A DNA stretch of 64,000 nt from Lotus japonicus (Eukaryota > Streptophyta > Magnoliopsida > Fabales > Fabaceae). The translations under genes were made by a program, and so were the position numbers. Below, piece after piece: positions 5,989 through 62,043 of this stretch. How positions within the stretch are numbered: position 1 is the stretch's first letter; the number at the start of each line of letters is the position of its first letter. Where the stretch lies: contig NC_080044.1 in the NCBI RefSeq assembly GCF_012489685.1, positions 56,473,507 through 56,537,506 on the forward strand. Direction: 5' to 3'. The notes under the pieces were generated by a model. It made no database searches. It saw nothing but the letters and a program-made list of their open reading frames with translations, and was not told the origin of the DNA.

Positions 5989-6662
5989 TGTAAGGCCCAA
6001 GTTTTAACGTTTTGGATAAGTGAATAAAATAAAGGAGTTATTTGATTAAGATAAATTTGGGAAGGAAAGAGGTTCAGGAAAAGTCCAAGAATGTATCGAA
6101 AAACCGAAAGAGTTATAGCACGACTAACATACGCTTAATCCTAGGTCAAAGGTATTAGTGAATAGTTAATTTACGCTTTAGGACACGATGGAAACTAATT
6201 CCAAAAATCCTCAGAGAAATGTTAGAACTTCTCTTTTCCGTCCTTAAACAACCATTTCGATGCGAAATCCTGGAAAGTACGAACGTCAAATTCCAATTCT
6301 CGGAAGTTTGCCGAAACGGAATCCCTGATAGTTCGAAAAACCTAAGATCGACAGACGATGAAGACTTTTTCTATCCGGAAACTCAAATGAAGATTCCACC
6401 CGCGTTCACCTACTTCTCTCATCATTCCTAATCTTTCTTCAGAAGGAAGTTTTCTTGTCCGACGATCACTGCAAAAAGTAGTTTTTCGGGATAAACCGAC
6501 TTACACCGACTTATGCCGATTTTGGATCTTTTGGTTTAATTCCAAGAATTTTATTTTGAGTTCTGGAATTCTGTCGCCAGAACCTATCTTAGAATGCGCA
6601 GAGGAACGCGCAGGAAAAATCGGAATCGCAAAAAAATCATTTTTCCGTTTTTTTCCAAAACC

Positions 6663-6670
6663 TATAAATA
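6663..6670 (+). promoter_or_regulatory. LTR TATA box
   Basis: TATAAATA in the context AACCTATAAATAGC, about 675 bases into the LTR. The related LTRs have the same motif at 18326, 25811 and 59198. Transcription should start about 30 bases downstream, so everything to the right of it in the LTR belongs to R and U5. Confidence 0.75.
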
Positions 6671-8211
6671 GCTTGAAAAATTAGATTTTTTTCACAAAAC
6701 CCATTTTCCCCACCCCTCCAAGCCGCGAGTTTCTAGAGAGAGAGAGAGATCCGGATCTTCGTCGTTTCTTGCCCGTTTGCTTCACCGTTCGTCACTAATC
6801 GAAGACCTCGAGGTAGGTAATCTATACTCTCCTTCGAATCGTCGTTTCTGTCCATTTCTCTTGCGACTTTCTGAGTTCAAAATTTTGAGGTTTTTGAAAA
6901 ACTGTTCAAATCAGCTGATTTCAGCGTCTAAACTTCTTCCCTGCATGCTCCTGAGCGTGTTCTGCGGATTAGATTTTGTCAAATGTCGACGAAATGCCGC
7001 CGGGATCAATTTCTACCCTAAATACCCATTTTTCGCCAAAGTCGCAACCTTTACGCTCTAATCTATCGACTTGGCTTAGTGCTAGTAGGATTTGTCGTCA
7101 TAAACGTCGTTGTGGACGTCCCCATCCAATTTGTTTTTCAAAAATCCAATTTTGAAATTCTGAGCTAAAAATAATGACCAAACTACCCCTATATCAGTTT
7201 TCGATCCGAAAATTTTTCCGAGCCTAGAACCGTCTTAGTTACGGCTTATGTTAACCTAGGAACCAAGTTTGATCGAAGAAAAATCGACCCTCCCAATTAA
7301 GGAAAGTGGCCGAGAGCTATATCAAGGGGGGAGGAGAATCCGATTTTTCGAAAACTTGTCTTAACGCGTTAGATTGTCGTACCACGGAGGTAGTAGTGTA
7401 CTGTGTAACCCTAGGACTCTTTGATTGCTGAGTTTCTGACTCTTGGTGTTGATTTCTGTGATTTTTGCTTAAGGTTCGTTTGAGGAGATTCCAAGAAACC
7501 AAGGAGAAGAGCTTGAAGAACATTTGGAGGAGGAAGCTGGAAGACCCACCGGTGAGGGCTACTCTCTGAATTACTAGATAATGCTTTAGGTGTCGATGAA
7601 ATTCGACTTGATTTATGTGTTATGCACTTAATTGCTAAATGTCTGAAATGATTTCTGAGGCTTCGGCCGAACTTGTTGAGTACTTGATGCCATGATATTG
7701 TGTGCTAAATGATTCACATGCTATGTGCTACATGGTTAACTTAGGATGTGTTGGAATATGCTGTTTATGTCTTTTGGTTGAGCTGTTTCAATGATGCTAT
7801 TCCACTCGTGCCTATGTTTCTGGAAAGTGAGGATTACGGGCAGGTCATGCCGAATTTTTATGAGATTTTGAGAGAGTTTTAAAAGGACGAACGGAGTTCG
7901 GACCTTGTCATGCTCCAATGGATCGAGACCTTCTCAGGGAATTACTTGGGTTATGGGAACTTTGAAACTCATAGGGAATACGATAAGACTAAAAAGAGCT
8001 ATTTTTATAAAGAAATTCATAAGATATTAAACAACCTCTAAACCTTTAAATAAAGATAACAATCTCGGATGCAAGCTTTGGATTGAAGTTTAGTTTTGGA
8101 AAACGAGAAGTGTCGTCGGATCCAAGTGTTGGGAAGATTTCGAGTTTTGGGTATGTTGATACTCATTCGCTCTGGGAGCAGTTTGTTTAGCCATCCAAGG
8201 GATGAGCCGAG

Positions 8212-8464
8212 AAGCTTCACGGAGGTGTGAGACCTTGTGAATGCGTGATACTCCACTGAGGCGTGAGACCTTGTGGAAAGCATGGATCTTCACTGAGGCG
8301 TGAGACCTCGTGAACAGCATGAAACTTCATTGAAGCGTGAGACTTCGTGCAAGTGTGTAAATTCACTGAGGCGTGAGACCTTGTGAAAGCATAAAACTTC
8401 ACTGAAGCGTGAGACTTTGTGAATGTGTGAGACTCCACAGAAGCGTGAGACTTCGTGAGAGCAT
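8212..8464 (+). repeat. 36-bp tandem stem-loop array in the LTR (class II, 7 units)
   Basis: The core GCGTGAGAC or GTGTGAGAC recurs at 8225, 8261, 8298, 8335, 8371, 8407 and 8443, a period of 36-37. Each unit can fold: TTCAC pairs with GTGAA across the conserved loop. In the second unit both arms change together (TCCAC with GTGGA). A 12-unit version is in the LTR at 17634. Confidence 0.85.
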
Positions 8465-9177
8465 TGATGACTCGAAGAGTTGTCGTGAGTGGCTGCACTC
8501 TTTTGTTTATGATTAATTGTATTTTGTCGCAGAATCGACATTTACCTTAGGGTATTCTTTTAGAGACTTTAAGTTATCTAGAACACGTGGCGACGTGTCG
8601 GGTGAGGTCGGAGACGTTGTTTGGCTAATCACTTGCATTCATGCACTCATTTTGAGGTTAATACACGGCGTGATACCGGACCTCGGTGGATTCCAAAATG
8701 GTCATAAGACCCGGATTTCCATATTTAGGACACTACGGTGGTCCTCAGTAGCAGACGGAATGGCAGACCTACGGGTTCACTGCTGATCTGACTACTTTTG
8801 TGTGGTGTAAGAGACACGCGAGCAGGAAGGTACCCACCGTGGCTGGTGTTAGGGCCGTCTCGTTGATGTCCATCCTTCTTCCGGAATGCATTTTGTTACC
8901 CAGCATTGCATTTCATGCAACATACATGCTAACTTAGTTGCTGAGTGTGATTGGTAACTGTTTATCCTATTTTTTTGAGGCATGCTACTTGTTTTTGTGG
9001 CTCTTTATATTTATTGTGATACATGCAACCCTAGGAAGCTACTCCAAAACTTATAAGCCTGAGAGGCGAGTATATATATTATCCTATAATTGTATCTGGC
9101 TTTATTAATTATATAATTCTTTGGAGTTGACCCTCGCGTCTGCTGTGTGTGTTTGGGCGGACTACGCCATTTGTCAG

Positions 9178-9660
9178 ATGAGTATGGGGGATTGGTTTAC
9201 CATGGTCAGCCCATCAGGGGGGACCAGGTACGAGATGCTTGACCAAGACGACCCAGGTGCATGGGTGGTCGATCCCGAGGGCCACCGTGCGACCTACACC
9301 GGTCGGATCATGGAGGACCGTGTCGATCGATTCGGACGCTTGACGGAGGGAGTGATGAGGAGGCACATAGTGAGCTTCAACCTGCCTCCAGGAGTACACT
9401 GTGGACCCGGCTTGGGAGTACCTCCACCGCCACCATCTCCTTCAGATGATGAGGACCCTGCTGAGGAGTTGCCAGTAGGTGGGGCTTCGACGGAGTCTAG
9501 TCCGTCTACTGCTGCTGCTGTCGTTGCGGATCTCGTTCCGGGCCCCGAGCCCGAGAGTCCAGTGCGGGAGCGCATTAGGGTGGACAGAGAGGGCAGTGTT
9601 GAGTACGTCGACCTAGTCGTCCTGGATGCAGATTCGGATGACGACCGCGCTAGCGTGTAG
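9178..9660 (+). CDS. LTR-embedded conserved ORF (acidic-tailed protein), copy 1
   Basis: The frame encodes 160 residues from ATG at 9178. The start was chosen because the two homologous frames (13790, 61375) also begin with ATG directly after CAG and show the same first residues (MS[MI][GA]DWF). The first 75 or so residues form the conserved part: WFTMVSPSGG, RYEM, DDPGAWVVD, HRATYTGRIMEDRVDR, then SFNLPPGVHCGPG. A Pro-rich spacer follows (PPPPPSPSDDEDP), then a Ser/Ala-rich stretch and an acidic end (DSDDD). I see no signal peptide, membrane segment or known catalytic motif, and I do not recognise the family. It lies in the U5 part of the LTR about 2.5 kb downstream of the TATA box, so in a full-length element it would precede gag on the RNA. 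Differences from the other copies are mostly single residues and the frame stays open, which suggests past selection. Acidic Ser/Asp tails are seen in many nuclear proteins, but no role is shown. Confidence 0.6.
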   Translation: MSMGDWFTMVSPSGGTRYEMLDQDDPGAWVVDPEGHRATYTGRIMEDRVDRFGRLTEGVMRRHIVSFNLPPGVHCGPGLGVPPPPPSPSDDEDPAEELPVGGASTESSPSTAAAVVADLVPGPEPESPVRERIRVDREGSVEYVDLVVLDADSDDDRASV

Positions 9661-10404
9661 GATCGAGTGCTAGTGTGGGCTCCTCGGGTAGGGATAGTGT
9701 AGGAGTTGTGTCGATGCTCTGACCGTCATGCTTCCGTTTTTGGGGACCGGGTAGTTTTCCTACCGGTAGCTTTTGTGTGGTTTCCTATGGAGATCGCAGA
9801 GAGCTGGTTGGATTTAGGGGGGTCTTTTCTTAGGCCGCTGGGCCAACTTGCTCTCAGTTTTTGTAGGTTAGTGTTGCGGACACAGCATCTTTATTTTGGA
9901 CTGTACATATTGCCTTCGGGCGTTACTCTTTTCTGTCACCCGACACGAGGCATGTATATATAGTTGTATAGTAGTTCCTTTTATCTTTTGTTAGGGAGTT
10001 TTATTGCTTTCTGTCTTTAGTTATATTGTCGAAAAAAAATAATTCACGTTTTTCCGCTTAAAGTATTTTCTTTTGGTTACTAAAGTGACGCCACCGAAAT
10101 CGGGGTGTTACACATTCTCTGGAGTCATTTGGGGATTATGAGATCCCGGAAACTTATAAGATTTCGATAAGACTAAAAGGATATTATTTTGTAAAGAAAA
10201 CTCATAAGACATTAAACAACCTCTAAATCTTCAAATAAAGATAATAAACTCGAAAGGAAGCTTAGGATGCAAATCTTAGTTTTTGGAAAACGAGAAGTGT
10301 CGTCGGATCTAATCGTTGAGGAAGTTGAGAAGTGCTGAGTTTGTCGATGTTCTTGTGCTGTTGGAGCAGCTATGTGTTGTTGGGCTATCCTGGGGATAAG
10401 TCCG

Positions 10405-10498
10405 GGAAACCGTTAGTTTCCGAGAGTGTGATACTCTGTGCTCGTTGAGCAGTTGTGACCATCGGATTGAGATGAGTCGGATGATTTGGAGATCATCG
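10405..10498 (+). repeat. Cluster of unlike short stem-loops in the older LTR
   Basis: Four small inverted repeats follow one another: GAAAC/GTTTC, GAGT/ACTC, GCTC/GAGC and GATGAT/ATCATC. They occupy the place where the other LTRs have their tandem stem-loop arrays, but the sequences differ. This part of the LTR thus keeps forming hairpins even where the repeats are not conserved. Confidence 0.5.
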
Positions 10499-12427
10499 TG
10501 CGTTATGTGTTGTTGTGAAGAAGTGTCTTTTGTCGCAGAATCGACTTTACCTTAGGGTAAGCTTTTAGAGACTTTAATTTACCTAGAACACGTGGCGACG
10601 TGTCAAGTGAGATCGGAGACGTTGTAAGGCCCTAAGTTCAACTTGGAACAAATTTTATGGAAGTTTGAATAAAATTGAAGTTTTTGGCTATGTTTGATAA
10701 CTGGCAGATTAGAACTGTCAACTTGTGTGAATATTTAGAGGGTCTTAACGACTTCATTTGGGAAAACTTCCTTCATGAGAGTTGTAGCCCTTCAAGTCTA
10801 GAAAATTCTCCAAGTCGTTTCGCGTCGATCCGATATCTGTAGCTCCAGATATCCCCGTTTTAGTGAACGCAGTTCCGGCTGTACAGTGCCAACAGAATTA
10901 TTGCATTGTTTTCTTCTAAGTCCGTATTTAATTATGAATTTACCTTTGAGGGCTTAGGTTTTAGTAAGTTTCAGGCCTGAGTAAGTTCTTAAGTGATTGG
11001 GTCACGGGTTTTGACTTGGGTCGGGCTTGAAAGAAAACAAACCCTAGCCCAAGAGAGGGGGCGCGGGCTATGTAGGGTTTTGGGGGGGGGAGGGTTTCTT
11101 TTCACACTATTCTGAAGAAAGAAACCTTGTGCACTTCTGAAACACGTAAAAACAGAGGAGAAAGAGTGAGAGAAACTTTCCCCTTGCACCCTAGCCGTCA
11201 CCGTCCCAAGCCCTACCACCGTCGACGTGTTCACGCAAGAGAGAGGAGGAGTTCGCGAGCGAGAGGGAGAGAGGAAGGGTTACGCGTGGAGAAGAGGAGA
11301 GAAACCAGAACCTTGCTCTTCAATTTCATCTTTTCTTCAAGCCTAAGGACAAAGGTAAGGGCTGGTTCTAGGAATGGGTAGATTCTTTAGGGAATATGCC
11401 ATGAATTGCCACGAGAAACAACTTGAGTTTTGGACTGTTTTTGCATGATTTCCTGTACATGCTTGCTTGCTGGAATTTTTCTCTTGAAAAGCCATGAATA
11501 TGATCCTCAAACGTTGTTTATGATCTGAATCCTTGATTTTATGCGAGTTGCCATGGTATTTGTTAAGTTTTGTGCTATTTTGCACTTGTTATAGCATGAT
11601 CCTTGCTAAATGTTTGGTTCTGAAATTTTGAGTGGATATTTGGGTTGTTGGGGCTGTACCAAGATTGCCATGATCAAAGGGGAAGGAAGGAAAATTATTT
11701 TTGAAAACCATAGAGCCATGGGAGTTTCGCTGCCAGTTTTCTGTACTGGACAGCGGACTTCAGAGCCCCTTTTTACCTGTTTATGGTCATCGAATGAAAA
11801 AGTGAGTAAAATGAAAGTTGTAGATTTTCGAAATATCTTTCCAGACATATAAAAATCATAATTTTTGGTTTAGTAATGTGATCTGGGGGTCGTGTTTAGT
11901 AACTGTCACACTTGCTGTTTTTCCTGTTCCGGACAGTTAGCTTTAAGGCCTAATATCACCTAATTCTGGGACTCAAATGAACAAGTGTGTAACTAGAGAG
12001 TTGTAGATATTTAAAATAGCTTTCTAGAAAGGTATCATACGTGATTTTTGGTTGAAAGATGCATTATGTGGCTCTATTTTTGTGAAAGTTGTTTCTGCTG
12101 TCAATATGTTGAAGTTGCGATGATATATTATGCATGAGTGAATGTTCTTGCGTTCCCTTACGTGGATTATATTTATTTTCTCAGTTAATGGTTCAAGGGT
12201 CGCTCACCTAGCCGTAATTCCCTTGTAACCCGTGAATGTTGTGTTGTGAAGGTTGTTGTATAAAGAGTATGATAAGACTCTAGGATTGACTTTAGAGACT
12301 TAAACAAAGAGAAACGCGTAATTAACTCGCTTGCAAGAAGATTGTGAATGAAATTTTATTGGACATAGGTCTAGTGAGACTATGGACCATGAGAACGATG
12401 GTACCTTGCACGCGAGGGAGTTATTTG

Positions 12428-12560
12428 GGTTGACTGCGGTCTCCCGTGAACCTTGTGGGCCGGTGTGGCTCCACGTGATTAGGTTGATTGCGGTCACCGT
12501 GAACTTTTGTGGATCATTGCGGCTCCACGTGATTTGGTTGACTGCGGTCACCGTGATAAC
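12428..12560 (+). repeat. 54-bp tandem repeat in the solo LTR
   Basis: GGTTGACTGCGGT or GGTTGATTGCGGT starts units at 12428, 12482 and 12536. Units contain the small inverted repeat CGGTCACCG and the motif GGCTCCACGTGATT. The array corresponds in position to the stem-loop arrays of the Tekay-type LTRs. Confidence 0.75.
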
Positions 12561-12776
12561 CGTGCCTCTGCGGAAGCACGAAGATGGCCATGGAAGGTTT
12601 GGTGGGTTGTGTGAAGTGAGATTCCGTTAGTAACTGACTCTTTCCCATAAAAGACATATAATGTACTTATATTATATATGTTGTTGTTGGTTTTGTCATT
12701 ATCATTCTTTTGTTGGACCTGACCCTGCTTGTTTGCTATGTGTTTATTTGGGGGGGGGTAGATGATCGTGAAGATA

Positions 12777-12899
12777 ATGGCGACGACTCATTCTTGGGAG
12801 TTGATGCTACGTGGCGAGCCACTACCGGATGACGACTACACTTCTGATGAAGAGGAAGAAGATAAAGAGGAAGGGGCCAAGGATATGGTTGGGTTGTGA
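12777..12899 (+). CDS. Short acidic LTR reading frame (40 aa)
   Basis: ATG at 12777 opens a 40-residue frame that begins MATTHSWELM, contains PLPDDDYTSDEEEEDKEEG and stops with TGA at 12899. It lies 326 bases from the LTR end. The sequence before it (GACCCTGCTTGTTTGCTATG, then a TTTGGGG-type run) resembles the stretch before the larger frames at 9178, 13790 and 61375. This is similarity of position and character (acidic, Asp/Glu/Ser-rich), not clear protein homology. The inverted relative at 42522 ends 337 bases from its LTR end and is also acidic. It may be the last exon of a spliced product, or chance. Confidence 0.3.
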   Translation: MATTHSWELMLRGEPLPDDDYTSDEEEEDKEEGAKDMVGL

Positions 12900-13789
12900 G
12901 ACATCCATTTTTCTTTTGGGTTGAGAGTACCGAGTTTTGGAAGTATTGAACCATTACTTTATTTTAGTTGAGATAGTTTAACTTGATGTAATTTACTTTG
13001 AAGTTTTCTTCCGGATATTTATTTCATACTCTTTTCAATGATTAATAAAGTTTGAGGTTTACGTTGATGATTATTTCCGCAAGTTTGAAATGGTTAAGTT
13101 TCGAGAATTTTGTAAAATTGAACTTTTATCATTAATTCAAGATTAATAAGTGAATCGACGAAAACTCTTTACGAAAATTTGGTTAATTAGTTACTGTGTA
13201 ACACTCGAGAAATCGGGGCGTTACAGACGTTGTTTGACTAATCATTCTGCATTCATGCAGTATTAATGAGGTATTAACACAGGACGTACTCTGGACCTCG
13301 TCGGTTTCCAAAATGGTCATAAGACCCGGAATGCCGTGTAAGAGCGTTGGTAGACGTCTCTTGTAGCAGACCGAAATGGCAGACCTACGGGTTTACTGCT
13401 GATCTGACTACGTGTGGTTGTTGGAGTAAGAGGCACGCGGGCCGAAATGGCTCCACCGTGGCTGGTGTTAGGGTTGATCCGTTTGATGTCCATCCCTTTC
13501 CGGAATGCATGTGGTTAACTGGGTTAACCGTCATTTGCATATCATGCAGCATGCATACTAATTTAGTTGTCGGATGTGATTGCTATTTGTTAATCCTAAT
13601 TGGAACATGTTAAGTGTTTTATTGTCGTTTACGTTATCGTGAAATATGCAACCCTAGGATGTTATCCCTAGTTATAAGCCTAAGCGGTTATTTCTTATCT
13701 TTACCTATTGGGTTTATTATCTACATAGTTCTTTGGAGTTGACCCTCGCGTCTTCTGTGTGTGTTTTGGCGGACAACGCCTTTTGTCAG

Positions 13790-14269
13790 ATGTCCATTGC
13801 GGATTGGTTCACAATGGTCCACCCTTCGGGGGGGATCAGATATGAGATGATTGACCAGGATGACCCCGGTTCGTGGGTGGTAGACCCCGCTAGCCACCGC
13901 GCGACCTATTCCGGGAGGATCATGGAGGATAGGGTAGATAGGGGAGGACTCTTGGTAGAGGGAGTGCTGAGGAGGTGCTCTGTCAGCTTCAACTTGCCAC
14001 CGGGTGTGCATTGCGGACCAGGAGCAGGAGGACCACCACCGCCACCGTCATCTTCAGAGGACGAGGATCCCTCAGAGGAGGAGTCAGTGGGAGTGCCTTC
14101 GGCAGAGTCTAGTGCACCCACCGCTGCGATCATTGAGGATCATGGATCGGGCCCAAAGCCCGTTAGTCCAGCACCGGAGCGCATCGCTGTTGCGAGAGGG
14201 GGCGGGGTAGTGTTTGTAGACTTAGTTGTTCTGGATTCCGATTCAGACGACGATCATGCTGACACATAG
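13790..14269 (+). CDS. LTR-embedded conserved ORF, copy 2
   Basis: The frame encodes 159 residues from ATG at 13790, again directly after CAG. It shares with copy 1 (9178) DWFTMV, PSGG, RYEM, DQDDPG, WVVDP, HRATY, GRIMEDRVDR and SFNLPPGVHCGPG, then has a Pro-rich spacer, an EDEDP acidic patch and the end VDLVVLDSDSDDD. It is intact although the LTR around it is truncated and carries a solo LTR insertion, and the two copies differ at many scattered positions. An open frame after that much divergence is the main argument that it encodes something. No known domain is recognised. Confidence 0.58.
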   Translation: MSIADWFTMVHPSGGIRYEMIDQDDPGSWVVDPASHRATYSGRIMEDRVDRGGLLVEGVLRRCSVSFNLPPGVHCGPGAGGPPPPPSSSEDEDPSEEESVGVPSAESSAPTAAIIEDHGSGPKPVSPAPERIAVARGGGVVFVDLVVLDSDSDDDHADT

Positions 14270-14763
14270 TTTTGAGTGTTAGTGTGAGCTCCTCGAGTTA
14301 GGATTAGTGTAGGAGTAGAGTCTTAGCTCTGACAGTCATCGCTTCATTTGCTTCTTTGGGGGACAGGGTAGTTCCGCCTATAGCTTTTTGTGTGGTTTCC
14401 TTACGGGAATCACAGAGAGTTGGTTGGACTTAGGAGGTCTTACTTTCAGACCATTGGGTCAGCTTATTCTCAGTTTTTGAGGGATGGTGTTGCGGACACT
14501 TCACCTTTTCATTTGGTTTGTACATATTGCCTACGGGCGCTACTCTTCTATTACCCGTCACTGGAGGTTTACTCGTGACGAGGTTGCTACTTACAGCGGG
14601 GGCTGTTATATATATTGTATATTAGTTCTATTGCTTTTCGCATTTGGGTTTTATCTATTTCAGTTTGTCCTAGTTATTATCGAAAAAAAAAAATATTCAC
14701 GTTTTTCCGCATTAAGTTTACTTTTGGTTACTAAAGTGACGCCACCGAAATTGGGGTGTTACA

Positions 14764-17633: not shown

Positions 17634-18325
17634 TGTAAGACCTGGATTTTCAGAACAAGCTAGTTTTCGACTCACGCGTAGAATCAGTGTAAGCGTGACA
17701 GGAGTTTGATATTTGAGGAAGATTAATGAAGAAGAAAGTTCAGGAATTGCTTGAGGGATGTTGCGTAGTTGTTTTCGGAGTTAGTGCGAGTCGTCTGCAC
17801 ACTTGCCTTAGGGCGAGCGTGTCCAGAATAGGCTATTTCGCTCTTAAAGCAACGTTTTGAGTGAGATTTCGAACTCTCGGAAAATTTAAAGATTCTCTTT
17901 ATTTTTCCATCGACCAGCGTTTCATTTCGGAACTCTGGACTGTACGCACGATAGGTTTCACTTTTCGGATGTCCGCCGACGCTAATTTCTTTGCTTCGAA
18001 ACCCTATTTTCGAGCAATGGATGAAGACTTTTTCTATTCGGGACTTCTAACGAAGATTCCGTCCGCGTTGCCAGATTTGTTTCGACGTTTCCAATCTTTC
18101 TTCAGAAGGAAGTTTTGTCGTCCGGCGATCACAGCAAAAAGTAGTTTTTCGGGACAGATTTAACTTACACCGCTTTTGAGATTTTCGATATCGTTTTTCC
18201 CATATCATAGATATTTGTTTTGAGTTATGGATTTCTAACGCCAGAATCTCTCTTAGAATTCCTTGGTGAACGTGCTGCAAAAATCGGAATCGCGAAATTT
18301 TCATTTTCCCGCGATTTCACCCGCC

Positions 18326-18333
18326 TATAAATA
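18326..18333 (+). promoter_or_regulatory. LTR TATA box (5' LTR)
   Basis: TATAAATA within the near-palindrome GCCTATAAATAGGC, about 690 bases into the LTR. Confidence 0.78.
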
Positions 18334-19808
18334 GGCGAAAAAGCAAAATATCTTTCATTTTCCTCCATTAGTGGCCCAAATTCGTGGAGAGCAAGGGGGG
18401 AGGAGATTTTCGCGAAAACTTGACCAATCTTCGTGCAGTTCGTCCCTACTTCTAGGTATCAAGGTAACTAACACGATTCCTACCTCTGATTGTTGTTTCT
18501 GTTGCGTTTCTGAAGTCGTTTCTGTGCTCTAAGTTTTGAGCTTTTTCTAAAATTGTCCGATTTCTCTGATTTCTCGCTTGGGTTATGTTCCTTATGTTCC
18601 CCTGAGTCTAAAACCTCTGTCAGTAAACTCTGATTGCGATTCAGTTGTCCAGGATCTGAAAAATTGACTCAAAACTCTTTTTGTCTCACATTTCGAAACT
18701 TTATTGTCGTAAAGCTATAATCTGACTTCGTGCCTTTAGGATTTGTTGTCACGGATGTCATGAGGATCGTTGCTGTCAAATCTGTTTTCAGAACTGATAA
18801 CTTTGAAGTTTTGAGCCTTTATTTTGGACCAAAATGCCCCTGCGTAGTCGTATTTCGACCCGATTGTCCGAAAATTGTTCTGACAGTTTCTTTGCCTTAG
18901 TTTTACCCTAAAACTACCTTGTAAACTGGTTTGATCGAAGAAAAAGAGCCGAAGCCCTTTTCTCCTTATGGCCGTGGGTTTTTCCTAAGGGGGGGGGAGT
19001 TTTTCGTTTTCGAAAACTTGTCCTTTCGTACCCGTTTGTCGTATTCTGAAGCTTTGATGCTTTGTCTATCGTTTATGTATTGTTTTGCGATCGAACTAAT
19101 CGATTTTGTTTGAATTCTGCTTTGTTTTTCTCCGAGGTTCAGTTGAAGGAACTTTGGAATATTCAGAGCAACTGTTTGAGGACAACCTTGATTTCGAAGC
19201 TGGAACAGCTCGAGGTTAGGGCAACTTGCTATATTTAGCTATGATTTCATGATAGGCGTCGATAAACTCGACCTATGCTTTATCTGATGTTGTATATGAT
19301 GATGATTTCTTGTTATGATTGTTTCATAACTTATGATATTGATGATGTGTTGAATTGAGCGTTTTGACGCAACTTCGGAGTGGAGGTTCATTGATCCGGT
19401 GATCTTTGACATTTCGGGTTGGATGAACAAACCTAGGCAAGTCCAAATGTGGGGTTTGAGACTTAGCCATTTGTTGGGATTCGTTGGAATTCCTAGACTT
19501 TCCCCGGGAAATGTATTTTGGGTGGTTGATTTTTGGAAACTTAGAATGATAGAGCTTTCGAAAAATAAAGACTTGGGAAACTTAGACTTTGAGAAATAAA
19601 CTCATAATTTGACTAATTTGAATTGAAATCATTTTTATTAACGTTTAAGCATAGGAGAACTGAAGGGGAAAAATATTTACGAAAGGCGGGGAAAAGTCGA
19701 CCTTTGTTGTGGGTTTGGAGAGTTATCGGAATTGGGAAAGCCACTAAGGTGAGCTATGGTGATGATTGAAAGTCACCGAGTACTCTAGTACTCTTGGGAG
19801 TGTTGTTC

Positions 19809-19896
19809 GAGTCGTGCTGTATTGACCGGCACAGACTCTGGGCTTTGTTTGTGGGTTTTGTGGTGGGAGTTGTGTTGTATTGACCGACACTAACTC
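19809..19896 (+). repeat. Class III stem-loops (2 units)
   Basis: Units at 19809-19838 and 19867-19896 share the loop TGTATTGACCG. In the first, GAGTCGTGC pairs with GCACAGACTC. In the second, GAGTTGTGT pairs with ACACTAACTC. Two stem positions change on both arms at once. Confidence 0.7.
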
Positions 19897-19981
19897 ATGG
19901 TTTTGTTGGGATTGGGTTGTGAGCTAAACACTTCCGTGGTAAGGGCGATTCGTTGTTTGGCTAACCATATTGCATCAATCG

Positions 19982-20122
19982 GGTGAATAACGGGAATGGT
20001 TCACCTGTGCATATCATATGGTGAATAACGGGAATGGTTCACCAAGGATGAATAACGGGAATGGTTCATCCAGGATGGATAACGGGAATGGTCCATCCAT
20101 AGTGAAGAACGGGAAGCTTCAC
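19982..20122 (+). repeat. Class I stem-loops (5 units)
   Basis: The units share a loop close to TAACGGGAATGG. Stems: GGTGAA/TTCACC (19982 and 20020), GGATGAA/TTCATCC (20046), GGATGGA/TCCATCC (20073), and AGTGAAG/CTTCACT with a shorter loop (20101). Every arm change is matched on the other arm. Confidence 0.82.
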
Positions 20123-20552
20123 TGAGGCGTGAGACTTCGTGAAAGCATGGAACTTCACTGAAGCGTGAGACTTCGTGAAAGTGAGTAAGCTTCACTGAGG
20201 CGTGAGACTTCGTGAAAGCAGAAACTTCACTGAGGCGGGAGACCTCGTGGAGACGGGAACCTTCGCTGAAGCGGGAGACTTTGCGAAGGCGTACACCTTT
20301 GCTGAAGCGGGAGACTTTGCGGAGGCGTGCAACTTCACTGAAGCGTGAGACTTCGAGAAGGTATGGAACTTCATTGAAGCGGGAGACTTCATGAAGGCGC
20401 GAAACTTCACTGAAGCGTGAGACTTCGTGAATGCGTGAAAATTCACTGAAGCGTGAGACTTCGTGAATGTGTGAGATTTCACTGAAGCGTGAGACTTCGT
20501 GAAAGCCTAAGACCCCATTGAAGCGTGAGACTTCATGGAAGCGTGAGATTTC
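20114..20552 (+). repeat. Class II stem-loop array, 36-bp period (12 units)
   Basis: The core GCGTGAGAC or GCGGGAGAC lies at 20127, 20163, 20200, 20235, 20271, 20307, 20343, 20379, 20415, 20451, 20487 and 20523. Arms pair as TTCAC/GTGAA in most units, CCTTCGC/GCGAAGG in the unit at 20271, CCTTTGC/GCGGAGG at 20307 (two G-T pairs, allowed in RNA) and CTTCAT/ATGAAG at 20379. Inner arms GAGG/CCTC also co-vary. Confidence 0.88.
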
Positions 20553-20877
20553 ATCGTCGTTTACCCTAGGGCAACGACAGGGAACATTGGTTTAGTTGGA
20601 TACGTGTGTGTTGGGAGGACGATACATTGTTTGACTAACCTTATCACCTAACTTCCTATGTTGAGATTATGATGATTTGATGTTGATGAACATCGTTAGG
20701 TATTAATGATTGAACTGTGTAGGAGATTCGAGAACATGCTATGTATATACCTTAGAGTAGGCAATACATAACTTATATGTATATATATACAACATATGTA
20801 TATATCCCCTTTATCACAAGTTGATTGTATATCTATTGTATTCTGTAAGTTGACCCTAGCGCCTTGGCTTTGTTTGT

Positions 20878-21186
20878 ATGTTTGTGTTTGGGCGGTCGGC
20901 CTGCTGCCTGGCGTCTGTCAGCCGGTTCGTGATGATTCGTTGTGCGGGAAAGACCCGGAGCGGAACGACTATTACTAAAGCTTTCGACGAGGACCCGGAC
21001 TTCATGCCTGATCGAGGGAGGGTCGATGATAGTAGTGTGGGGTATGGGTGGTTAGAGTCTTTTGGAGTTGGTTGTTACTGTAATAGCTCTGATTCGTTTT
21101 GCTTTTGGGACAGGGTAGGTTCCCGATGCATGACTTTTTGTGTGGTTCTCTTACGGAGGGATCACAGTGAGTCAGTCGGACCATAG
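20878..21186 (+). pseudogene. Remnant of the LTR-embedded ORF in the 5' LTR
   Basis: The lead-in (TTGACCCTAGCGCCTTGG, then MFVFGRSACC in translation) is the same as before the intact frame of the solo LTR at 61342. After about ten codons the sequences part: the MADWF...GVHCGPG core is absent and a short unrelated frame of 102 codons replaces it. The downstream non-coding part (TTTTGTGTGGTTCT and so on) is conserved again. The core therefore appears to have been deleted or replaced in this non-autonomous family. Confidence 0.6.
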
Positions 21187-21511
21187 GGGTCTTTGCTTAG
21201 GCCATTTTGAGGCCGACTTTCTCCTAGTGGTTTGTAATTATACTTTTTCTCACTCACACTTCTGGATCTGTAAATATTTGCCTACGGGCACACTACTTTG
21301 GAGTCACCGCGAGTGTGTGTGACGTGGAAGTGCAGCTGAGGCTGTACATGTTTATATTTGATGTATATCGGTTAGTTTAGTAGTTGGGTTTTGTCTTTAC
21401 TTCCTTATCGTTTTGATTTAAAGGAAAGAAAACGAAAAAAATTACCTGTTTTCCGCGTAAAGATTATTTTTGGTTACTAAAGTGACACCTGGAAATCGGG
21501 GTGTTACATTG

Positions 21512-25118: not shown

Positions 25119-25810
25119 TGTAAGACCTGGATTTTCAGAACAAGCTAGTTTTCGACTCACGCGTAGAATCAGTGTAAGCGTGACAGGAGTTTGATATTTG
25201 AGGAAGATTAATGAAGAAGAAAGTTCAGGAATTGCTTGAGGGATGTTGCGTAGTTGTTTTCGGAGTTAGTGCGAGTCGTCTGCACACTTGCCTTAGGGCG
25301 AGCGTGTCCAGAATAGGCTATTTCGCTCTTAAAGCAACGTTTTGAGTGAGATTTCGAACTCTCGGAAAATTTAAAGATTCTCTTTATTTTTCCATCGACC
25401 AGCGTTTCATTTCGGAACTCTGGACTGTACGCACGATAGGTTTCACTTTTCGGATGTCCGCCGACGCTAATTTCTTTGCTTCGAAACCCTATTTTCGAGC
25501 AATGGATGAAGACTTTTTCTATTCGGGACTTCTAACGAAGATTCCGTCCGCGTTGCCAGATTTGTTTCGACGTTTCCAATCTTTCTTCAGAAGGAAGTTT
25601 TGTCGTCCGGCGATCACAGCAAAAAGTAGTTTTTCGGGACAGATTTAACTTACACCGCTTTTGAGATTTTCGATATCGTTTTTCCCATATCATAGATATT
25701 TGTTTTGAGTTATGGATTTCTAACGCCAGAATCTCTCTTAGAATTCCTTGGTGAACGTGCTGCAAAAATCGGAATCGCGAAATTTTCATTTTCCCGCGAT
25801 TTCACCCGCC

Positions 25811-25818
25811 TATAAATA
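25811..25818 (+). promoter_or_regulatory. LTR TATA box (3' LTR)
   Basis: TATAAATA, the same context as at 18326. In this copy it could drive transcription rightward into the satellite array. Confidence 0.75.
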
Positions 25819-27293
25819 GGCGAAAAAGCAAAATATCTTTCATTTTCCTCCATTAGTGGCCCAAATTCGTGGAGAGCAAGGGGGGAGGAGATTTTCGCGA
25901 AAACTTGACCAATCTTCGTGCAGTTCGTCCCTACTTCTAGGTATCAAGGTAACTAACACGATTCCTACCTCTGATTGTTGTTTCTGTTGCGTTTCTGAAG
26001 TCGTTTCTGTGCTCTAAGTTTTGAGCTTTTTCTAAAATTGTCCGATTTCTCTGATTTCTCGCTTGGGTTATGTTCCTTATGTTCCCCTGAGTCTAAAACC
26101 TCTGTCAGTAAACTCTGATTGCGATTCAGTTGTCCAGGATCTGAAAAATTGACTCAAAACTCTTTTTGTCTCACATTTCGAAACTTTATTGTCGTAAAGC
26201 TATAATCTGACTTCGTGCCTTTAGGATTTGTTGTCACGGATGTCATGAGGATCGTTGCTGTCAAATCTGTTTTCAGAACTGATAACTTTGAAGTTTTGAG
26301 CCTTTATTTTGGACCAAAATGCCCCTGCGTAGTCGTATTTCGACCCGATTGTCCGAAAATTGTTCTGACAGTTTCTTTGCCTTAGTTTTACCCTAAAACT
26401 ACCTTGTAAACTGGTTTGATCGAAGAAAAAGAGCCGAAGCCCTTTTCTCCTTATGGCCGTGGGTTTTTCCTAAGGGGGGGGGAGTTTTTCGTTTTCGAAA
26501 ACTTGTCCTTTCGTACCCGTTTGTCGTATTCTGAAGCTTTGATGCTTTGTCTATCGTTTATGTATTGTTTTGCGATCGAACTAATCGATTTTGTTTGAAT
26601 TCTGCTTTGTTTTTCTCCGAGGTTCAGTTGAAGGAACTTTGGAATATTCAGAGCAACTGTTTGAGGACAACCTTGATTTCGAAGCTGGAACAGCTCGAGG
26701 TTAGGGCAACTTGCTATATTTAGCTATGATTTCATGATAGGCGTCGATAAACTCGACCTATGCTTTATCTGATGTTGTATATGATGATGATTTCTTGTTA
26801 TGATTGTTTCATAACTTATGATATTGATGATGTGTTGAATTGAGCGTTTTGACGCAACTTCGGAGTGGAGGTTCATTGATCCGGTGATCTTTGACATTTC
26901 GGGTTGGATGAACAAACCTAGGCAAGTCCAAATGTGGGGTTTGAGACTTAGCCATTTGTTGGGATTCGTTGGAATTCCTAGACTTTCCCCGGGAAATGTA
27001 TTTTGGGTGGTTGATTTTTGGAAACTTAGAATGATAGAGCTTTCGAAAAATAAAGACTTGGGAAACTTAGACTTTGAGAAATAAACTCATAATTTGACTA
27101 ATTTGAATTGAAATCATTTTTATTAACGTTTAAGCATAGGAGAACTGAAGGGGAAAAATATTTACGAAAGGCGGGGAAAAGTCGACCTTTGTTGTGGGTT
27201 TGGAGAGTTATCGGAATTGGGAAAGCCACTAAGGTGAGCTATGGTGATGATTGAAAGTCACCGAGTACTCTAGTACTCTTGGGAGTGTTGTTC

Positions 27294-28037
27294 GAGTCGT
27301 GCTGTATTGACCGGCACAGACTCTGGGCTTTGTTTGTGGGTTTTGTGGTGGGAGTTGTGTTGTATTGACCGACACTAACTCATGGTTTTGTTGGGATTGG
27401 GTTGTGAGCTAAACACTTCCGTGGTAAGGGCGATTCGTTGTTTGGCTAACCATATTGCATCAATCGGGTGAATAACGGGAATGGTTCACCTGTGCATATC
27501 ATATGGTGAATAACGGGAATGGTTCACCAAGGATGAATAACGGGAATGGTTCATCCAGGATGGATAACGGGAATGGTCCATCCATAGTGAAGAACGGGAA
27601 GCTTCACTGAGGCGTGAGACTTCGTGAAAGCATGGAACTTCACTGAAGCGTGAGACTTCGTGAAAGTGAGTAAGCTTCACTGAGGCGTGAGACTTCGTGA
27701 AAGCAGAAACTTCACTGAGGCGGGAGACCTCGTGGAGACGGGAACCTTCGCTGAAGCGGGAGACTTTGCGAAGGCGTACACCTTTGCTGAAGCGGGAGAC
27801 TTTGCGGAGGCGTGCAACTTCACTGAAGCGTGAGACTTCGAGAAGGTATGGAACTTCATTGAAGCGGGAGACTTCATGAAGGCGCGAAACTTCACTGAAG
27901 CGTGAGACTTCGTGAATGCGTGAAAATTCACTGAAGCGTGAGACTTCGTGAATGTGTGAGATTTCACTGAAGCGTGAGACTTCGTGAAAGCCTAAGACCC
28001 CATTGAAGCGTGAGACTTCATGGAAGCGTGAGATTTC
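27294..28037 (+). repeat. Stem-loop arrays of the 3' LTR (classes III, I and II)
   Basis: Duplicate of the 5' LTR arrays: class III at 27294-27381, class I at 27467-27607, class II (12 units of 36 bp) at 27599-28037. Confidence 0.85.
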
Positions 28038-28362
28038 ATCGTCGTTTACCCTAGGGCAACGACAGGGAACATTGGTTTAGTTGGATACGTGTGTGTTGGG
28101 AGGACGATACATTGTTTGACTAACCTTATCACCTAACTTCCTATGTTGAGATTATGATGATTTGATGTTGATGAACATCGTTAGGTATTAATGATTGAAC
28201 TGTGTAGGAGATTCGAGAACATGCTATGTATATACCTTAGAGTAGGCAATACATAACTTATATGTATATATATACAACATATGTATATATCCCCTTTATC
28301 ACAAGTTGATTGTATATCTATTGTATTCTGTAAGTTGACCCTAGCGCCTTGGCTTTGTTTGT

Positions 28363-28671
28363 ATGTTTGTGTTTGGGCGGTCGGCCTGCTGCCTGGCGTC
28401 TGTCAGCCGGTTCGTGATGATTCGTTGTGCGGGAAAGACCCGGAGCGGAACGACTATTACTAAAGCTTTCGACGAGGACCCGGACTTCATGCCTGATCGA
28501 GGGAGGGTCGATGATAGTAGTGTGGGGTATGGGTGGTTAGAGTCTTTTGGAGTTGGTTGTTACTGTAATAGCTCTGATTCGTTTTGCTTTTGGGACAGGG
28601 TAGGTTCCCGATGCATGACTTTTTGTGTGGTTCTCTTACGGAGGGATCACAGTGAGTCAGTCGGACCATAG
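28363..28671 (+). pseudogene. Remnant of the LTR-embedded ORF in the 3' LTR
   Basis: Copy of the remnant at 20878. It keeps the MFVFGRSACC lead-in but lacks the conserved core. Confidence 0.58.
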
Positions 28672-28993
28672 GGGTCTTTGCTTAGGCCATTTTGAGGCCG
28701 ACTTTCTCCTAGTGGTTTGTAATTATACTTTTTCTCACTCACACTTCTGGATCTGTAAATATTTGCCTACGGGCACACTACTTTGGAGTCACCGCGAGTG
28801 TGTGTGACGTGGAAGTGCAGCTGAGGCTGTACATGTTTATATTTGATGTATATCGGTTAGTTTAGTAGTTGGGTTTTGTCTTTACTTCCTTATCGTTTTG
28901 ATTTAAAGGAAAGAAAACGAAAAAAATTACCTGTTTTCCGCGTAAAGATTATTTTTGGTTACTAAAGTGACACCTGGAAATCGGGGTGTTACA

Positions 28994-55427: not shown

Positions 55428-55428
55428 A

Positions 55429-58501: not shown

Positions 58502-59197
58502 AACGTTGTAAGACCTGGATTTTCAGAACAAGCTAGTTTCCGACTCACGCGTAGAATCAGTGTAAGCGTGACAGGAGTTTGACATTTGAGAAAGATTAAT
58601 GAAGAAGAAAGTTCAGGAATTGCTTGAGGAATGTTGCGTAGCTGTTTTCGGAGTTAGTGCGAGTCGTCTGCACACCTGCCTTATGGCAAGCGTGTCCAGA
58701 ATAGGCTATTTCGCTCTTAAAGCAACGTTTTGAGTGAGATTTCGAACTCTCGGAAAATTTAAAGATTCTTTTTATTTTTCCATCGACCAGCGTTTCATTT
58801 CGGAACTCTGGACTGTACGCACGATAGGTTTCACTTTTCGGATGTCCGCCGACGCTAATTTCTTTGCTTCGAAACCCTATTTTCGAGCAATGGATGAAGA
58901 CTTTTTCTATTCGGGACTTCTAACGAAGATTCCGTCCGCGTTGCCAGACTTGTTTCGACGTTTCCAATCTTTCTTCAGTTGGAAGTTTTGTCGTTTGAGC
59001 ATCAAAGCAAAAAGTAGTTTTTCGGGGCAGATTAACCGACACCGCTTTTGAGTTTTTCGATATCGTTTTTCCCAAATCCTAGATATTTGTTTTGAGTTCT
59101 GGAATTATGACGCTAGAATCTCTCTTAGAATTCCACGCTGATCGTGCTGCAAAAATCGGAATCGCGAAATTTTCATTTTCCCGCGATTTCGCCCGCC

Positions 59198-59205
59198 TAT
59201 AAATA
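59198..59205 (+). promoter_or_regulatory. LTR TATA box (solo LTR)
   Basis: TATAAATA in GCCTATAAATAGGC, as at 18326. The solo LTR thus keeps promoter, stem-loops and reading frame together. Confidence 0.77.
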
Positions 59206-60661
59206 GGCGAAAAAGAAAATATCTTCTTCATTTTCACTCATTTGGCCGAGAATTGTAGAGAGAGAGGGAGAGGAGAGATTTCGAGAAATCTTGACCAATC
59301 TTCGTGCAGTTCGTCCCTACTTCTAGGTATCAAGGTACCTAACACGATTCCTACCTCTGATTGTTGTTTCTGTTGCGTTTCTGAAGCCGTTTCTGTGCTC
59401 TAAGTTTTGAGCTTTTTCTAAAATTGTCCGATTTCTCTGATTTCTCGCTTGGGTTATGTTCCTTATGTTCCCCTGAGTCTAAAACCTCTGTCAGTAAACT
59501 CTGATTTCGATTCAGTTGTCCAGGATCTGAAAAATTGACTCAAAACTCTTTTTGTCTCACATTTCGAAACTTTATTGTTGTAAAGCTATAATCTGACTTC
59601 GTGCCTTTAGGATTTGTTGTCACGGATGTCATGAGGATCGTTGCTGTCAAATTTGTTTTCAGAACTGATAACTTTGAAGTTTTGAGCCTTTATTTTGGAC
59701 CAAAATGCCCCTGCGTAGTCGTATTTCGACCCGATTGTCCGAAAATTGTTCTGACAGTTTCTTTGTCTTAGTTTTACCCTAAAACTACCTTGTAAACTGA
59801 TTTGATCGAAGAAAAAGAGCCGAAGCCCTTTTCTCCTTATGGCCGTGGGTTTTTCCTAAGGGGGGGGAAGTTTTTCGTTTTCGAAAACTTGTCCTTTCGT
59901 ACCCGTTTGTCGTATTCTGAAGCTTTGATGCTTTGTCTATCGTTTATGTATTGTTTTACGATCGAACTAATCGATTTTGTTTGAATTCTGCTTTGTTTTT
60001 CTCCGAGGTTCAGTTGAAGGAACTTTGGAATATTCAGAGCAACTGTTTGAGGACAACCTTGATTTCGAAGCTGGAACAGCTCGAGGTTAGGGCAACTTAC
60101 TATATATTAGCTATGACTGCATGATAGGCGTCGATAAATTCGACTTATGTTTTATCTGATGTTGTTTTTGATGATGAGTTGATGTTATGATGCTTTTCCA
60201 TACTTGTGATGTTGTGCTTTTGTTGGATTGAGCGTTTTGACGCAATTTCGGAGTGGAGATTCATTGATCTGGTGATCTTTGATATTTCGGGTTGGATGAA
60301 CAACCCTAGGCAAGTCCAAATGTGGGGTTTGAGACTTAGCCATATGTTGGAATTCTTAGACTTTCCCCGGGAAATGTGTTTTGGGTGGTTGATCTTTGAA
60401 AACTTAGAATGATAGAGCTTTGAAAAACTAAAGACTTGGGAAACCTAGATTTTGAGAAATAAACTCATAACCTGACTAATCTGAATTGAAATCATTTTTA
60501 TTAACGTTTAAGCATAGGAGAACTGAAGGGGAAAATATTTACGAAAGACGGGGAAAAGTCGACCTTTGCTGAGAGTTATCGGAATTGGGGAAAGCCACTA
60601 AGGTGAGCTATGGTGATGATTGAAGTCACCGAGTACTTTAGTACTCTTGGGGAGTGTTGTG

Positions 60662-60811
60662 GAGCCGTGTTGTATTGACCGACACTTAGCGCTCTTGTTG
60701 TTTGGGCTGTGTTGTATTGACCGACACTAGACCCTTGTGTTTTCTTGTTGGAGTTGTGTTGTATTGACCGACACTTACTCCGAGTTGTGTTGTATTGACC
60801 GACACTAACTC
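60662..60811 (+). repeat. Class III stem-loops (4 units)
   Basis: Loop TGTATTGACCG four times. Stems include GGAGTTGTGT/ACACTTACTCC and GAGTTGTGT/ACACTAACTC; the second unit has GGG at one foot and CCC at the other. Confidence 0.78.
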
Positions 60812-60898
60812 ATTGGGTTGGTTGAGATTGGGTTGTGAGCTAAACACTTTCGTGGTAAGGGCGATTCGTTGTTTGGCTAACCACGTTGCATTCAATCG

Positions 60899-61134
60899 GG
60901 TGAATAACGGGAATGGTTCACCTGTGCATATCATGGTGAATAACGGGAATGGTTCACCTTGCATTAATGATGAATAACGGGAATGGTTCATCATTCGGTG
61001 AATAACGGGAATGGTTCACCAAGGATGAATAACGGGAATGGTTCATCCAGGATGGATTTCATCCAGGATGGATAACGGGAATGGTCCATCCATAGTGAAA
61101 ATGCTTCACTTGTGGCGAACGGGAACGCGTCACA
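60899..61134 (+). repeat. Class I stem-loops (about 7 units)
   Basis: Loop TAACGGGAATGG with stems GGTGAA/TTCACC, GATGAA/TTCATC, GGATGAA/TTCATCC and GGATGGA/TCCATCC, then GTGGCG...CGCGTCAC with a shortened loop. One unit is partly duplicated (GGATGGATTTCATCC). Confidence 0.82.
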
Positions 61135-61374
61135 AATCCGGATTCATATTGTGCATTTCACGCATACATTCATGCTGACTGAGACTGTGTGCTGTTTGTT
61201 TATTGAAGCAATGTTAGAGCCATAACATGCTAGGATTATTTATATGCTTATATAACAACTTATATATATATACCCTGTCACTTGCTGTGTGTATATGTAC
61301 TTATTGCTGTGAGTTGACCCTAGCGCCTTGGCTTTGTTTGTATGTTTGTCTTTGGGCGGTCGGCCTGCTGCCAG

Positions 61375-62043
61375 ATGTCGATGGCCGACTGGTTCTCGAC
61401 GGTCTCTCCCTCGGGGGGGATCAGATATGAGTTGCTGGATAGGGATGCCCCCACCGCTTGGGTGATCGATGTGGCTGGTCACCGGGCGACGTATAGGGGA
61501 AGGGTCATGGAGGACCGGACGGATGAGCGAGGACGCCTGACGAGCGGAGTGCTACGGCGTATGGAGCTGAGTTTTGACTTGCCGCCCTCAGTTCATTGTG
61601 GACCAGGCACTGGACATGCACCACCTGCACCACCTCCGACTTCACCTTCTGTTGAGGAGGACCCAGAGGAGATCGAGCCTGCTGCTGCTTCTACACCTGT
61701 TGTGCCACCTCCGGCTACTGCCATCGCTTCTACCGACGTGGCGTCGTCCTCTAGGCTCGTACAGCCGAGGAGGGAGTCTGTTGTCCCATCTGTCTCACGT
61801 CTCTTATCTTTCTCTTCACCGCACGGCTACCGTGTGGACCCCTTGATGAGGGTGGAGGAGGAGGATGTTCTCACAGGAGAGGTGGATGTGGAGACCGGCT
61901 CGACTAGGGCGGTGCGCAGGACAGTGAGGAGGGAGGTTATGGATTTGGACACCGAGATGATTACGGTGGATTCCGACTCTGACTCCGAGAGCAGTGGGGA
62001 GAGCTACTCGCCGAGCAGCGATGAGGAGGAGGATGATTGGTGA
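61375..62043 (+). CDS. LTR-embedded conserved ORF, copy 3 (longest)
   Basis: The frame encodes 222 residues from ATG at 61375, directly after CAG; an earlier in-frame ATG at 61342 (MFVFGRSACCQ) is less likely because the other copies have no matching start. The core is shared with 9178 and 13790: MADWF, VSPSGGIRYE, HRATYRGRVMEDR, RGRLTSGVLRR and PPSVHCGPG. The Pro-rich spacer and Ser/Val-rich middle are longer here, with an extra Arg-rich segment (RRTVRREV) before the very acidic end (DSDSDSESSGE, then DEEEDDW). It belongs to a different LTR subfamily from the other two copies, so the core has outlasted the LTR sequences around it. No known domain is recognised. Confidence 0.62.
   Translation: MSMADWFSTVSPSGGIRYELLDRDAPTAWVIDVAGHRATYRGRVMEDRTDERGRLTSGVLRRMELSFDLPPSVHCGPGTGHAPPAPPPTSPSVEEDPEEIEPAAASTPVVPPPATAIASTDVASSSRLVQPRRESVVPSVSRLLSFSSPHGYRVDPLMRVEEEDVLTGEVDVETGSTRAVRRTVRREVMDLDTEMITVDSDSDSESSGESYSPSSDEEEDDW

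What the first reader, a model, noticed from the sequence alone, without database searches (positions are those of the whole stretch)
9178..9660. A conserved reading frame sits inside the LTRs of Tekay-type elements (three intact copies)
Seen: frames at 9178-9660, 13790-14269 and 61375-62043 share a core of about 75 residues (DWF, PSGG, RYE, HRATY, MEDR, PPGVHCGPG), a Pro-rich spacer and an acidic Asp/Ser tail, and each ATG follows CAG. The copies lie in two LTR subfamilies that have diverged greatly around them. Known: LTRs normally hold no protein gene, and extra frames in Ty3/gypsy elements usually lie between LTRs. Inference: this is an LTR-encoded accessory protein, first on the genomic RNA and duplicated with each LTR pair.
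Basis: partly seen in the sequence, partly recalled or inferred. Interest (0 to 1): 0.88.

Follow-up and report, generated by a model that had tools for sequence, protein, structure and literature searches.

The report
Spliced accessory gene within retrotransposon LTRs
The long end-repeats of a group of jumping genes in Lotus plants appear to carry a small spliced gene for a protein kept by selection, an unusual place for a gene, and the job of the protein is still unknown.

Summary
Three intact frames (160, 159, 222 aa) lie inside three LTRs at the stated coordinates, each ATG after CAG. They evolve as protein: A versus B shows 47 amino-acid changes against 78.4 expected after context-matched shuffling (0 of 2000 as low). 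The one ORF gap is 3 bases; the flanks hold 21 gaps, 17 not multiples of three. A profile search gave 17 relatives; 9 are named, all Lotus japonicus.

The interpretation needs changing. The CAG before ATG is probably a splice acceptor: LTRs A and C have a TATA box, two AUG-free leader segments bounded by splice-like sites, a TTGACCCT motif, then CAG|ATG. Two L. japonicus gene models join that leader exon to the ORF exon, in two frames. On unspliced RNA 44-46 AUGs precede the frame. Against: the ATG acceptor scores poorly, and one model reads through unspliced. The only LTR pair in the window (100% identical) lacks the frame.

Best reading: an LTR-borne, probably spliced accessory gene, a new variant of plant additional ORFs. 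Function is inferred. RNA, genome-wide intactness and Tekay phylogeny were not testable.

The parts
9178..9660 (+). LTR ORF, copy A, 160 aa (predicted exon 3, ATG right after CAG)
   Evidence: coding selection
13790..14269 (+). LTR ORF, copy B, 159 aa
61375..62043 (+). LTR ORF, copy C, 222 aa, longer linker and tail (in-frame ATG also at 61342)
5989..10112 (+). LTR A (TGTAAGG...GTGTTACA) behind gag-pol 1818-5951
   Evidence: comparison searches used 5990 as its start
6663..6669 (+). TATA box TATAAAT of LTR A; counterparts 59198 (C) and 18326 (Y)
6694..6812 (+). Predicted exon 1 of LTR A (start assumed 31 bases after TATA), donor GAG|GTAGGTAA; no ATG
7474..7551 (+). Predicted exon 2 of LTR A, 78 nt, acceptor TTAAG|, donor CCACCG|GTGAGG; no ATG; matches the N-terminus of L. 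japonicus P0004
9127..9177 (+). TTGACCCT (branch-point-like), T/G-rich stretch and CAG before the ATG; the 60 aligned positions from 9110 are the most conserved of the A-B comparison (0.90)
13739..13789 (+). Same TTGACCCT...CAG segment in LTR B
58507..62507 (+). Solo LTR C with 5-bp duplication AACGT (58502-58506, 62508-62512)
59229..59334 (+). Predicted exon 1 of LTR C (assumed start), donor AAG|GTACCTAA
60008..60085 (+). Predicted exon 2 of LTR C, 78 nt
61314..61374 (+). TTGACCCT...CAG segment before the ATG of C
10113..14763 (+). LTR B, 5' part absent from the window, interrupted by D
10623..13225 (+). Insertion D, solo-LTR-like, TGTAAGG...GTTACA, 5-bp duplication GACGT; donor AAG|GTAAGG after 11354, CTGACCCT at 12719, TAG|ATG at 12762
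12762..12899 (+). 45-aa acidic frame of D opened by TAG|ATG; no Pfam match
17634..21508 (+). 5' LTR of element Y: TATA box, predicted exons 1 and 2 and TTGACCCT kept, ORF lost
25119..28993 (+). 3' LTR of element Y, identical to the 5' LTR

Best explanation
The LTRs of this Lotus Ty3/gypsy group carry a whole small gene. Transcription starts at the TATA box about 0.7 kb into the LTR. Two short leader exons without AUG are spliced and joined to a CAG|ATG acceptor, so the coding exon begins with its own start codon. The product is a 160-222 aa protein: an N-terminal domain of about 75 residues, predicted beta-rich, a disordered Pro/acidic linker and an acidic end. Unspliced RNA would serve as the genome for reverse transcription; spliced RNA would make the accessory protein. 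Shown here: the frames, their coding selection, and the conserved promoter and splice-like sites. Supported by outside annotation: the exon 2-exon 3 junction. Inferred: that RNA is made and spliced so in the plant; that the protein acts in trans (Y moved recently without the frame); and that it helps the element against host silencing or in RNA control, perhaps through a SUMO-binding C-terminus (about 0.2 for an anti-silencing role).
For: Coding selection in all three pairs. TATAAATAG, donor 1, both sides of the 78-nt exon 2, aligned in A, C and Y. Leader with 0 ATG in A, C, Y and in a 255-nt stretch of D, against 46, 44 and 38 ATG unspliced in A, C and D; chance of no ATG by shuffling 0.040, 0.022, 0.011 for A, C, D. 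(T/C)TGACCCT 40-58 bases before the ATG in A, B, C and D. T content 0.17-0.28 in predicted exons, 0.32-0.40 in predicted introns of A, C, D. N-terminus of L. japonicus P0004 equals LTR A exon 2 joined to MSMADWF (score 109, 0 of 500 shuffles) and that of P0009 matches across the same junction in another frame (88, 0 of 500). Eight annotated L. japonicus loci on six large contigs.
Against: No RNA data were reachable; whether the gene models rest on RNA is unknown. The ATG acceptor ranks only 35 of 266 AGs in A and 128 of 227 in C, exon 2 acceptor 39 of 227 in C and donor 22 of 270 in A (recalled weights). U3 (T 0.30-0.33) and the stretch after the ORF (0.37-0.41) are as T-rich as the introns, so composition is not specific. 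ATG-free windows of leader length make up 8.5% (A) and 9.2% (C) of the unspliced stretch. P0005, an annotated L. japonicus model, reads through the unspliced codons, and P0006 and P0010 look the same. P0007 fits only weakly (24 of 500) and unspliced A also scores for P0009 (43, 0 of 500) because exon 3 is shared. D's start was guessed at 11100; no TATA-like box was found upstream of it. A-B synonymous divergence exceeds that of the flanks, unexplained.
Confidence: 0.7

Rival explanations
1. Same selected protein, but translated from unspliced RNA started at the proximal TATA-like stretch about 110 bases before the ATG; the CAG is only context.
For: TATATAT at 9071 (A) and 61261 (C); P0005 reads through the unspliced codons; weak ATG acceptor score.
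Against: No TATA match before the ORF in B (one search lists 11848, 12673, both in D, and 14607); does not account for the exon 2 to exon 3 joins in P0004 and P0009 or for the aligned donor and exon 2 sites.
Confidence: 0.2
2. It is the ORF0 / 5' additional ORF known from grass and sunflower Tekay elements, displaced into the LTR in Lotus; nothing else is special.
For: Same side of gag-pol, element group by features, Pro-rich and disordered stretches; ORF0 also evolves under constraint (mean Ka 0.2574, Ks 1.6471) and diverges fast (PMC3485330).
Against: ORF0 is described upstream of ORF1 and found only in grasses, soybean and other dicot homologues having ORF1 alone (PMC3485330); the sunflower protein is 402 aa with helices and an NLS, this one is 159-222 aa and predicted beta-rich. 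My protein searches returned no grass protein, which only excludes close relatives.
Confidence: 0.15
3. A host gene or gene fragment captured by one LTR lineage, now evolving as passenger or domesticated again as host genes.
For: Annotated as ordinary L. japonicus genes.
Against: No relative outside the family was found by sequence; present in both diverged LTR subfamilies with constraint between them.
Confidence: 0.05
4. Chance frame in a GC-rich LTR stretch, not translated.
For: The frames are GC-rich (0.58-0.60); A-B DNA identity is no higher than in the flanks; one antisense frame of A has only 1 stop.
Against: 0 of 2000 context-matched shuffles reach the low number of amino-acid changes in each of three pairs; the one gap keeps frame; the other two forward frames hold 7-11 stops.
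Confidence: 0.02

Closest known systems
ORF0 / 5' additional ORF of Tekay-Del elements (Retrosat2, RIRE3, sunflower Tekay group 2)
   Same: Extra sense frame on the 5' side of gag-pol, fast-diverging, unknown function, long LTRs (PMC3485330 passages and one section; PMC11728184 passages and one section).
   Different: Those are described upstream of the gag-pol ORF, not inside the LTR; sizes and predicted folds differ; no sequence link found.
MMTV Sag
   Same: A protein encoded in an LTR and kept by selection (called an LTR-encoded ERV protein, sag under purifying selection: PMC11998498 abstract and passages).
   Different: Animal retrovirus superantigen; no sequence or fold link; here the frame lies after the promoter, probably in R-U5.
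Ogre partial splicing
   Same: Plant Ty3/gypsy element using an intron for expression (PMC6317226 passage).
LORE1 / LORE2, transpositionally active L. japonicus chromoviruses
   Same: Same host genus as the named relatives; Gypsy elements (PMC2832683 passages).
   Different: Described there with one long ORF; whether LORE2's LTR holds this frame could not be checked.

Membership tests
Tekay/Del chromovirus | Ty3/gypsy reverse transcriptase | tested here: met
   RVT_1, E 4.1e-38, in piece 3018-3737; Pfam does not separate lineages
Tekay/Del chromovirus | Chromodomain at the integrase C-terminus | tested here: inconclusive
   Piece 5568-5948 gave SH3_Tf2-1 and Integrase_p58_C, no chromodomain at E 0.1
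Tekay/Del chromovirus | Primer site complementary to initiator tRNA-Met (recalled as typical) | tested here: met
   TGGTATCAGAGC at 21512 in Y only; A's site is not in the window
Tekay/Del chromovirus | Position in a reverse-transcriptase tree | not tested
   No classified plant reference set was at hand
ORF0 / 5' additional ORF | Frame in the internal region between 5' LTR and gag-pol | tested here: not met
   All three frames lie inside LTRs
ORF0 / 5' additional ORF | Sequence relation to grass or sunflower proteins | tested here: inconclusive
   Protein searches returned no such hit; no direct comparison was made
LTR-encoded accessory protein (MMTV Sag type) | Coding frame located in the LTR | tested here: met
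LTR-encoded accessory protein (MMTV Sag type) | Made from a spliced RNA | tested here: inconclusive
   Predicted sites and two gene models; no RNA data
LTR-encoded accessory protein (MMTV Sag type) | Homology or fold similarity to Sag | tested here: inconclusive
   The P0001 model gave no match at E <= 0.001 in the viral library, but the model is of low confidence

The most novel reading that the evidence does not exclude
In legume chromoviruses the LTR is itself a portable spliced gene: promoter, leader introns and a coding exon opened by AG|ATG. Each solo LTR therefore stays a complete gene, unrelated products (the 160-222 aa protein in A, B and C, a 45-aa acidic peptide in D) have filled the same slot, and the protein acts in trans against host chromatin silencing.
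Probability: 0.25. Interest if true: 0.86.

Novelty: new variant of a known kind. Interest (0 to 1): 0.68.

Why it matters
LTRs are treated as regulatory DNA, and the surveys of additional ORFs that I saw describe them in the internal region. A selected, spliced gene inside LTRs would mean that a solo LTR can go on expressing an element protein after the rest of the element is gone, and that repeat masking may hide it. It could also give a reason for unusually long LTRs. One RNA junction decides the main claim.

Tried and rejected
Known families: Pfam none at E <= 1 for the three proteins. PDB sequences: three weak matches (E 0.12-0.16, proteasome subunit, over the Pro-rich part) for P0001, none at E <= 1 for the alignment. 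Foldseek: P0003 model against PDB and P0001 model against the viral library, none at E <= 0.001. The models are weak (mean pLDDT 57.9 and 56.4; blocks for residues 21-70 at 69-81), so no fold is named.

Relatives outside Lotus: one IMG/VR scan gave none; a core-only search gave 7 proteins, all in the earlier set. The search scored only the 7992 candidates sharing most words. No plant genome collection was at hand, so 'Lotus only' describes these searches.

The window's own assembly: not answered in three tries, so the test 'most copies broken' was not run.

SUMO-interacting C-terminus: an idea only. A strict pattern sits at the C-terminus of 8 of 20 proteins, but not in P0001 or P0003 themselves; shuffled P0001 and P0003 match in 264 and 528 of 5000.

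In-frame extension into the leader (65 codons in A, 61 in C without a stop): no AUG opens it, so left as leader.

Print: the searches for ORFs or introns in plant LTRs listed no plant element with a gene in the LTR. Listings were capped (20 of 164, 20 of 22, 10 of 14); the 2011 extra-ORF survey of Steinbauerova et al. was seen only as a reference.

Full report
Check of the observation. Copy A lies in a 4.1-kb LTR (5989-10112) behind a gag-pol frame; copy C in a solo LTR with a 5-bp target duplication; copy B in an LTR ending at 14763 that abuts a 191-bp satellite array, lacks its 5' part in the window and is interrupted by insertion D. A fourth LTR insertion of the group, element Y with 100% identical LTRs, has lost the frame. 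So three of four LTR insertions of this group in the window carry an intact frame. Intactness after insertion is weak evidence by itself; the selection test below rests on divergence between families.

Is it coding? Between A and B the differences fall 34, 28 and 71 on codon positions 1-3; dN/dS is 0.164 (bootstrap 0.083-0.278), in the core 0.090. A-C and B-C are near saturation at synonymous sites, with dN/dS 0.233 and 0.288 and wide intervals reaching 0.398 and 0.471. Since third positions might be hypermutable through methylated CG or CHG sites, I redealt the same substitutions onto sites of the same base and context: 47 amino-acid changes against 78.4 +/- 4.0 (A-B), 78 against 113.2 +/- 4.0 (A-C), 81 against 111.4 +/- 4.3 (B-C); 0 of 2000 shuffles as low in each. 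The one A-B gap in the ORF is 3 bases; the flanks hold 21 gaps of 1-18 bases, 17 of them not multiples of three. One thing does not fit a simple picture: synonymous divergence (pS 0.60) is far above flank divergence (0.23-0.24). Either the LTR flanks are themselves constrained, or the ORF segments have an older, mosaic history. I leave this open.

What lies around it. Aligning LTRs A, C and Y shows shared landmarks in diverged sequence: TATAAATAG about 0.7 kb in; a donor AG|GTAGGTAA (A), AG|GTACCTAA (C), AG|GTAACTAA (Y); a 78-nt segment bounded by AG and GTGAGGG or GTTAGGG. Before the ORF lie TTGACCCT, a T/G-rich stretch and CAG|ATG in A, B and C. The predicted leader (197 nt in A, 184 in C) has no ATG, against 46 and 44 in the unspliced stretch; shuffles give an ATG-free leader with probability 0.040 and 0.022, and ATG-free windows of that length make up 8.5% and 9.2% of the unspliced stretch. 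T content is 0.17-0.28 in predicted exons and 0.32-0.40 in predicted introns of A, C and D, but U3 (0.30-0.33) and the stretch after the ORF (0.37-0.41) are T-rich too. By a recalled weight table donor 1 ranks 2 of 270 (A), 2 of 272 (C) and 1 of 272 (Y); donor 2 ranks 22, 6 and 6; the exon 2 acceptor 7 of 266, 39 of 227 and 40 of 222; the ATG acceptor only 35 of 266 (A) and 128 of 227 (C).

Outside evidence for the junction. The profile search gave 17 proteins, 9 named, all L. japonicus; eight of these are annotated loci on six large contigs. The N-terminus of P0004 (LOC130723053) matches LTR A exon 2 and is joined directly to MSMADWF, where the genome would read CAG; P0009 (LOC130727753) matches across the same junction in another frame (scores 109 and 88, 0 of 500 shuffles each). 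For P0009 the unspliced stretch also scores (43, 0 of 500), because exon 3 is shared. P0007 is compatible but weak (24 of 500). Against this, P0005 aligns with unspliced codons and P0006 and P0010 look alike. P0011-P0014 begin at or near the ORF's own ATG and say nothing. I could not see whether any model rests on RNA. P0016 bears a UniProt name that I recall as typical of cDNA clones; not tested.

The protein. The core is predicted as a short helix and beta strands at moderate confidence; the linker is disordered; strands near the C-terminus may pair. No relative outside the family was found by sequence or fold. P0016 and P0017 keep the core but lose the linker and acidic tail; P0018 does so too and starts later.

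How it works. Shown: a selected coding frame in LTRs, and conserved promoter and splice-like sites. Supported: exon 2 to exon 3 joining. Inferred: a spliced mRNA makes the protein; unspliced RNA is the genome; the protein acts in trans, since Y, whose internal part holds only one frame of 120 aa or more, moved recently without it. The role is most likely defence of the element against silencing or control of its RNA; I give the anti-silencing role about 0.2.

Compared with what is known. Additional ORFs of plant LTR elements are described in the internal region (PMC7264820, passages), ORF0 upstream of gag-pol and only in grasses (PMC3485330, passages and one section), a 402-aa 5' additional ORF in sunflower (PMC11728184, passages and one section), and heterogeneous extra ORFs elsewhere (PMC6317226, passages). 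A survey of Del LTRs reports CpG islands, not frames, in the passages I saw (PMC4029996). Retrosat2 has a U3 of 244 bases and an R of about 2 kb, which agrees with an early start site in a long LTR. The closest parallel in location is Sag of MMTV (PMC11998498, abstract and passages). My searches listed no plant element with a gene inside the LTR (some listings capped). Hence a new variant of a known kind.

A second case. Insertion D has a 255-nt ATG-free stretch from 11100 (a start that I chose; no TATA-like box was found upstream of it), donor AAG|GTAAGG, CTGACCCT and TAG|ATG opening a 45-aa acidic frame. One copy cannot show selection, but it suggests that the layout may be wider than this protein.

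Noticed in passing
9178-9660 against 13790-14269: Synonymous divergence (pS 0.60) is far above divergence of the non-coding LTR on both sides (0.23-0.24); not explained.
   Followed up: partly
10623-13225: Insertion D in LTR B: solo-LTR-like, with splice-like sites and a 45-aa acidic frame opened by TAG|ATG.
   Followed up: partly
17634-28993: Element Y, LTRs 100% identical over 3875 bp, 4-bp repeat CCGA at its ends, inserted in the satellite array; internal part of 3.6 kb with zinc-knuckle gag remnant, probably moved by other elements' proteins.
   Followed up: partly
14764-17633 and 28994-39443: 191-bp satellite array, about 15 and 55 copies at 93% match, split by Y.
   Followed up: no
46985-55709: 287-bp repeats 99.3% alike flank an element with gypsy pol frames on the minus strand and plus-strand frames at 48106-49056 (Pfam Transposase_28) and 49002-50750; looks like a Retand-type element with antisense extra ORFs.
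   Followed up: partly
43382-44443 and 56654-57217: Endonuclease and RNase H-like frames (Exo_endo_phos, RVT_3) on either side of the 46985-55709 element: probably one LINE split by it.
   Followed up: partly
1-400: The window seems to begin in the end of another LTR element, followed by GGTATCAGAG repeats; origin not examined.
   Followed up: no
8204-8462 and 20093-20553: Short tandem units (GCGTGAGAC...) within predicted intron 2 of LTR A are shared with the LTR of Y (77-89%).
   Followed up: no
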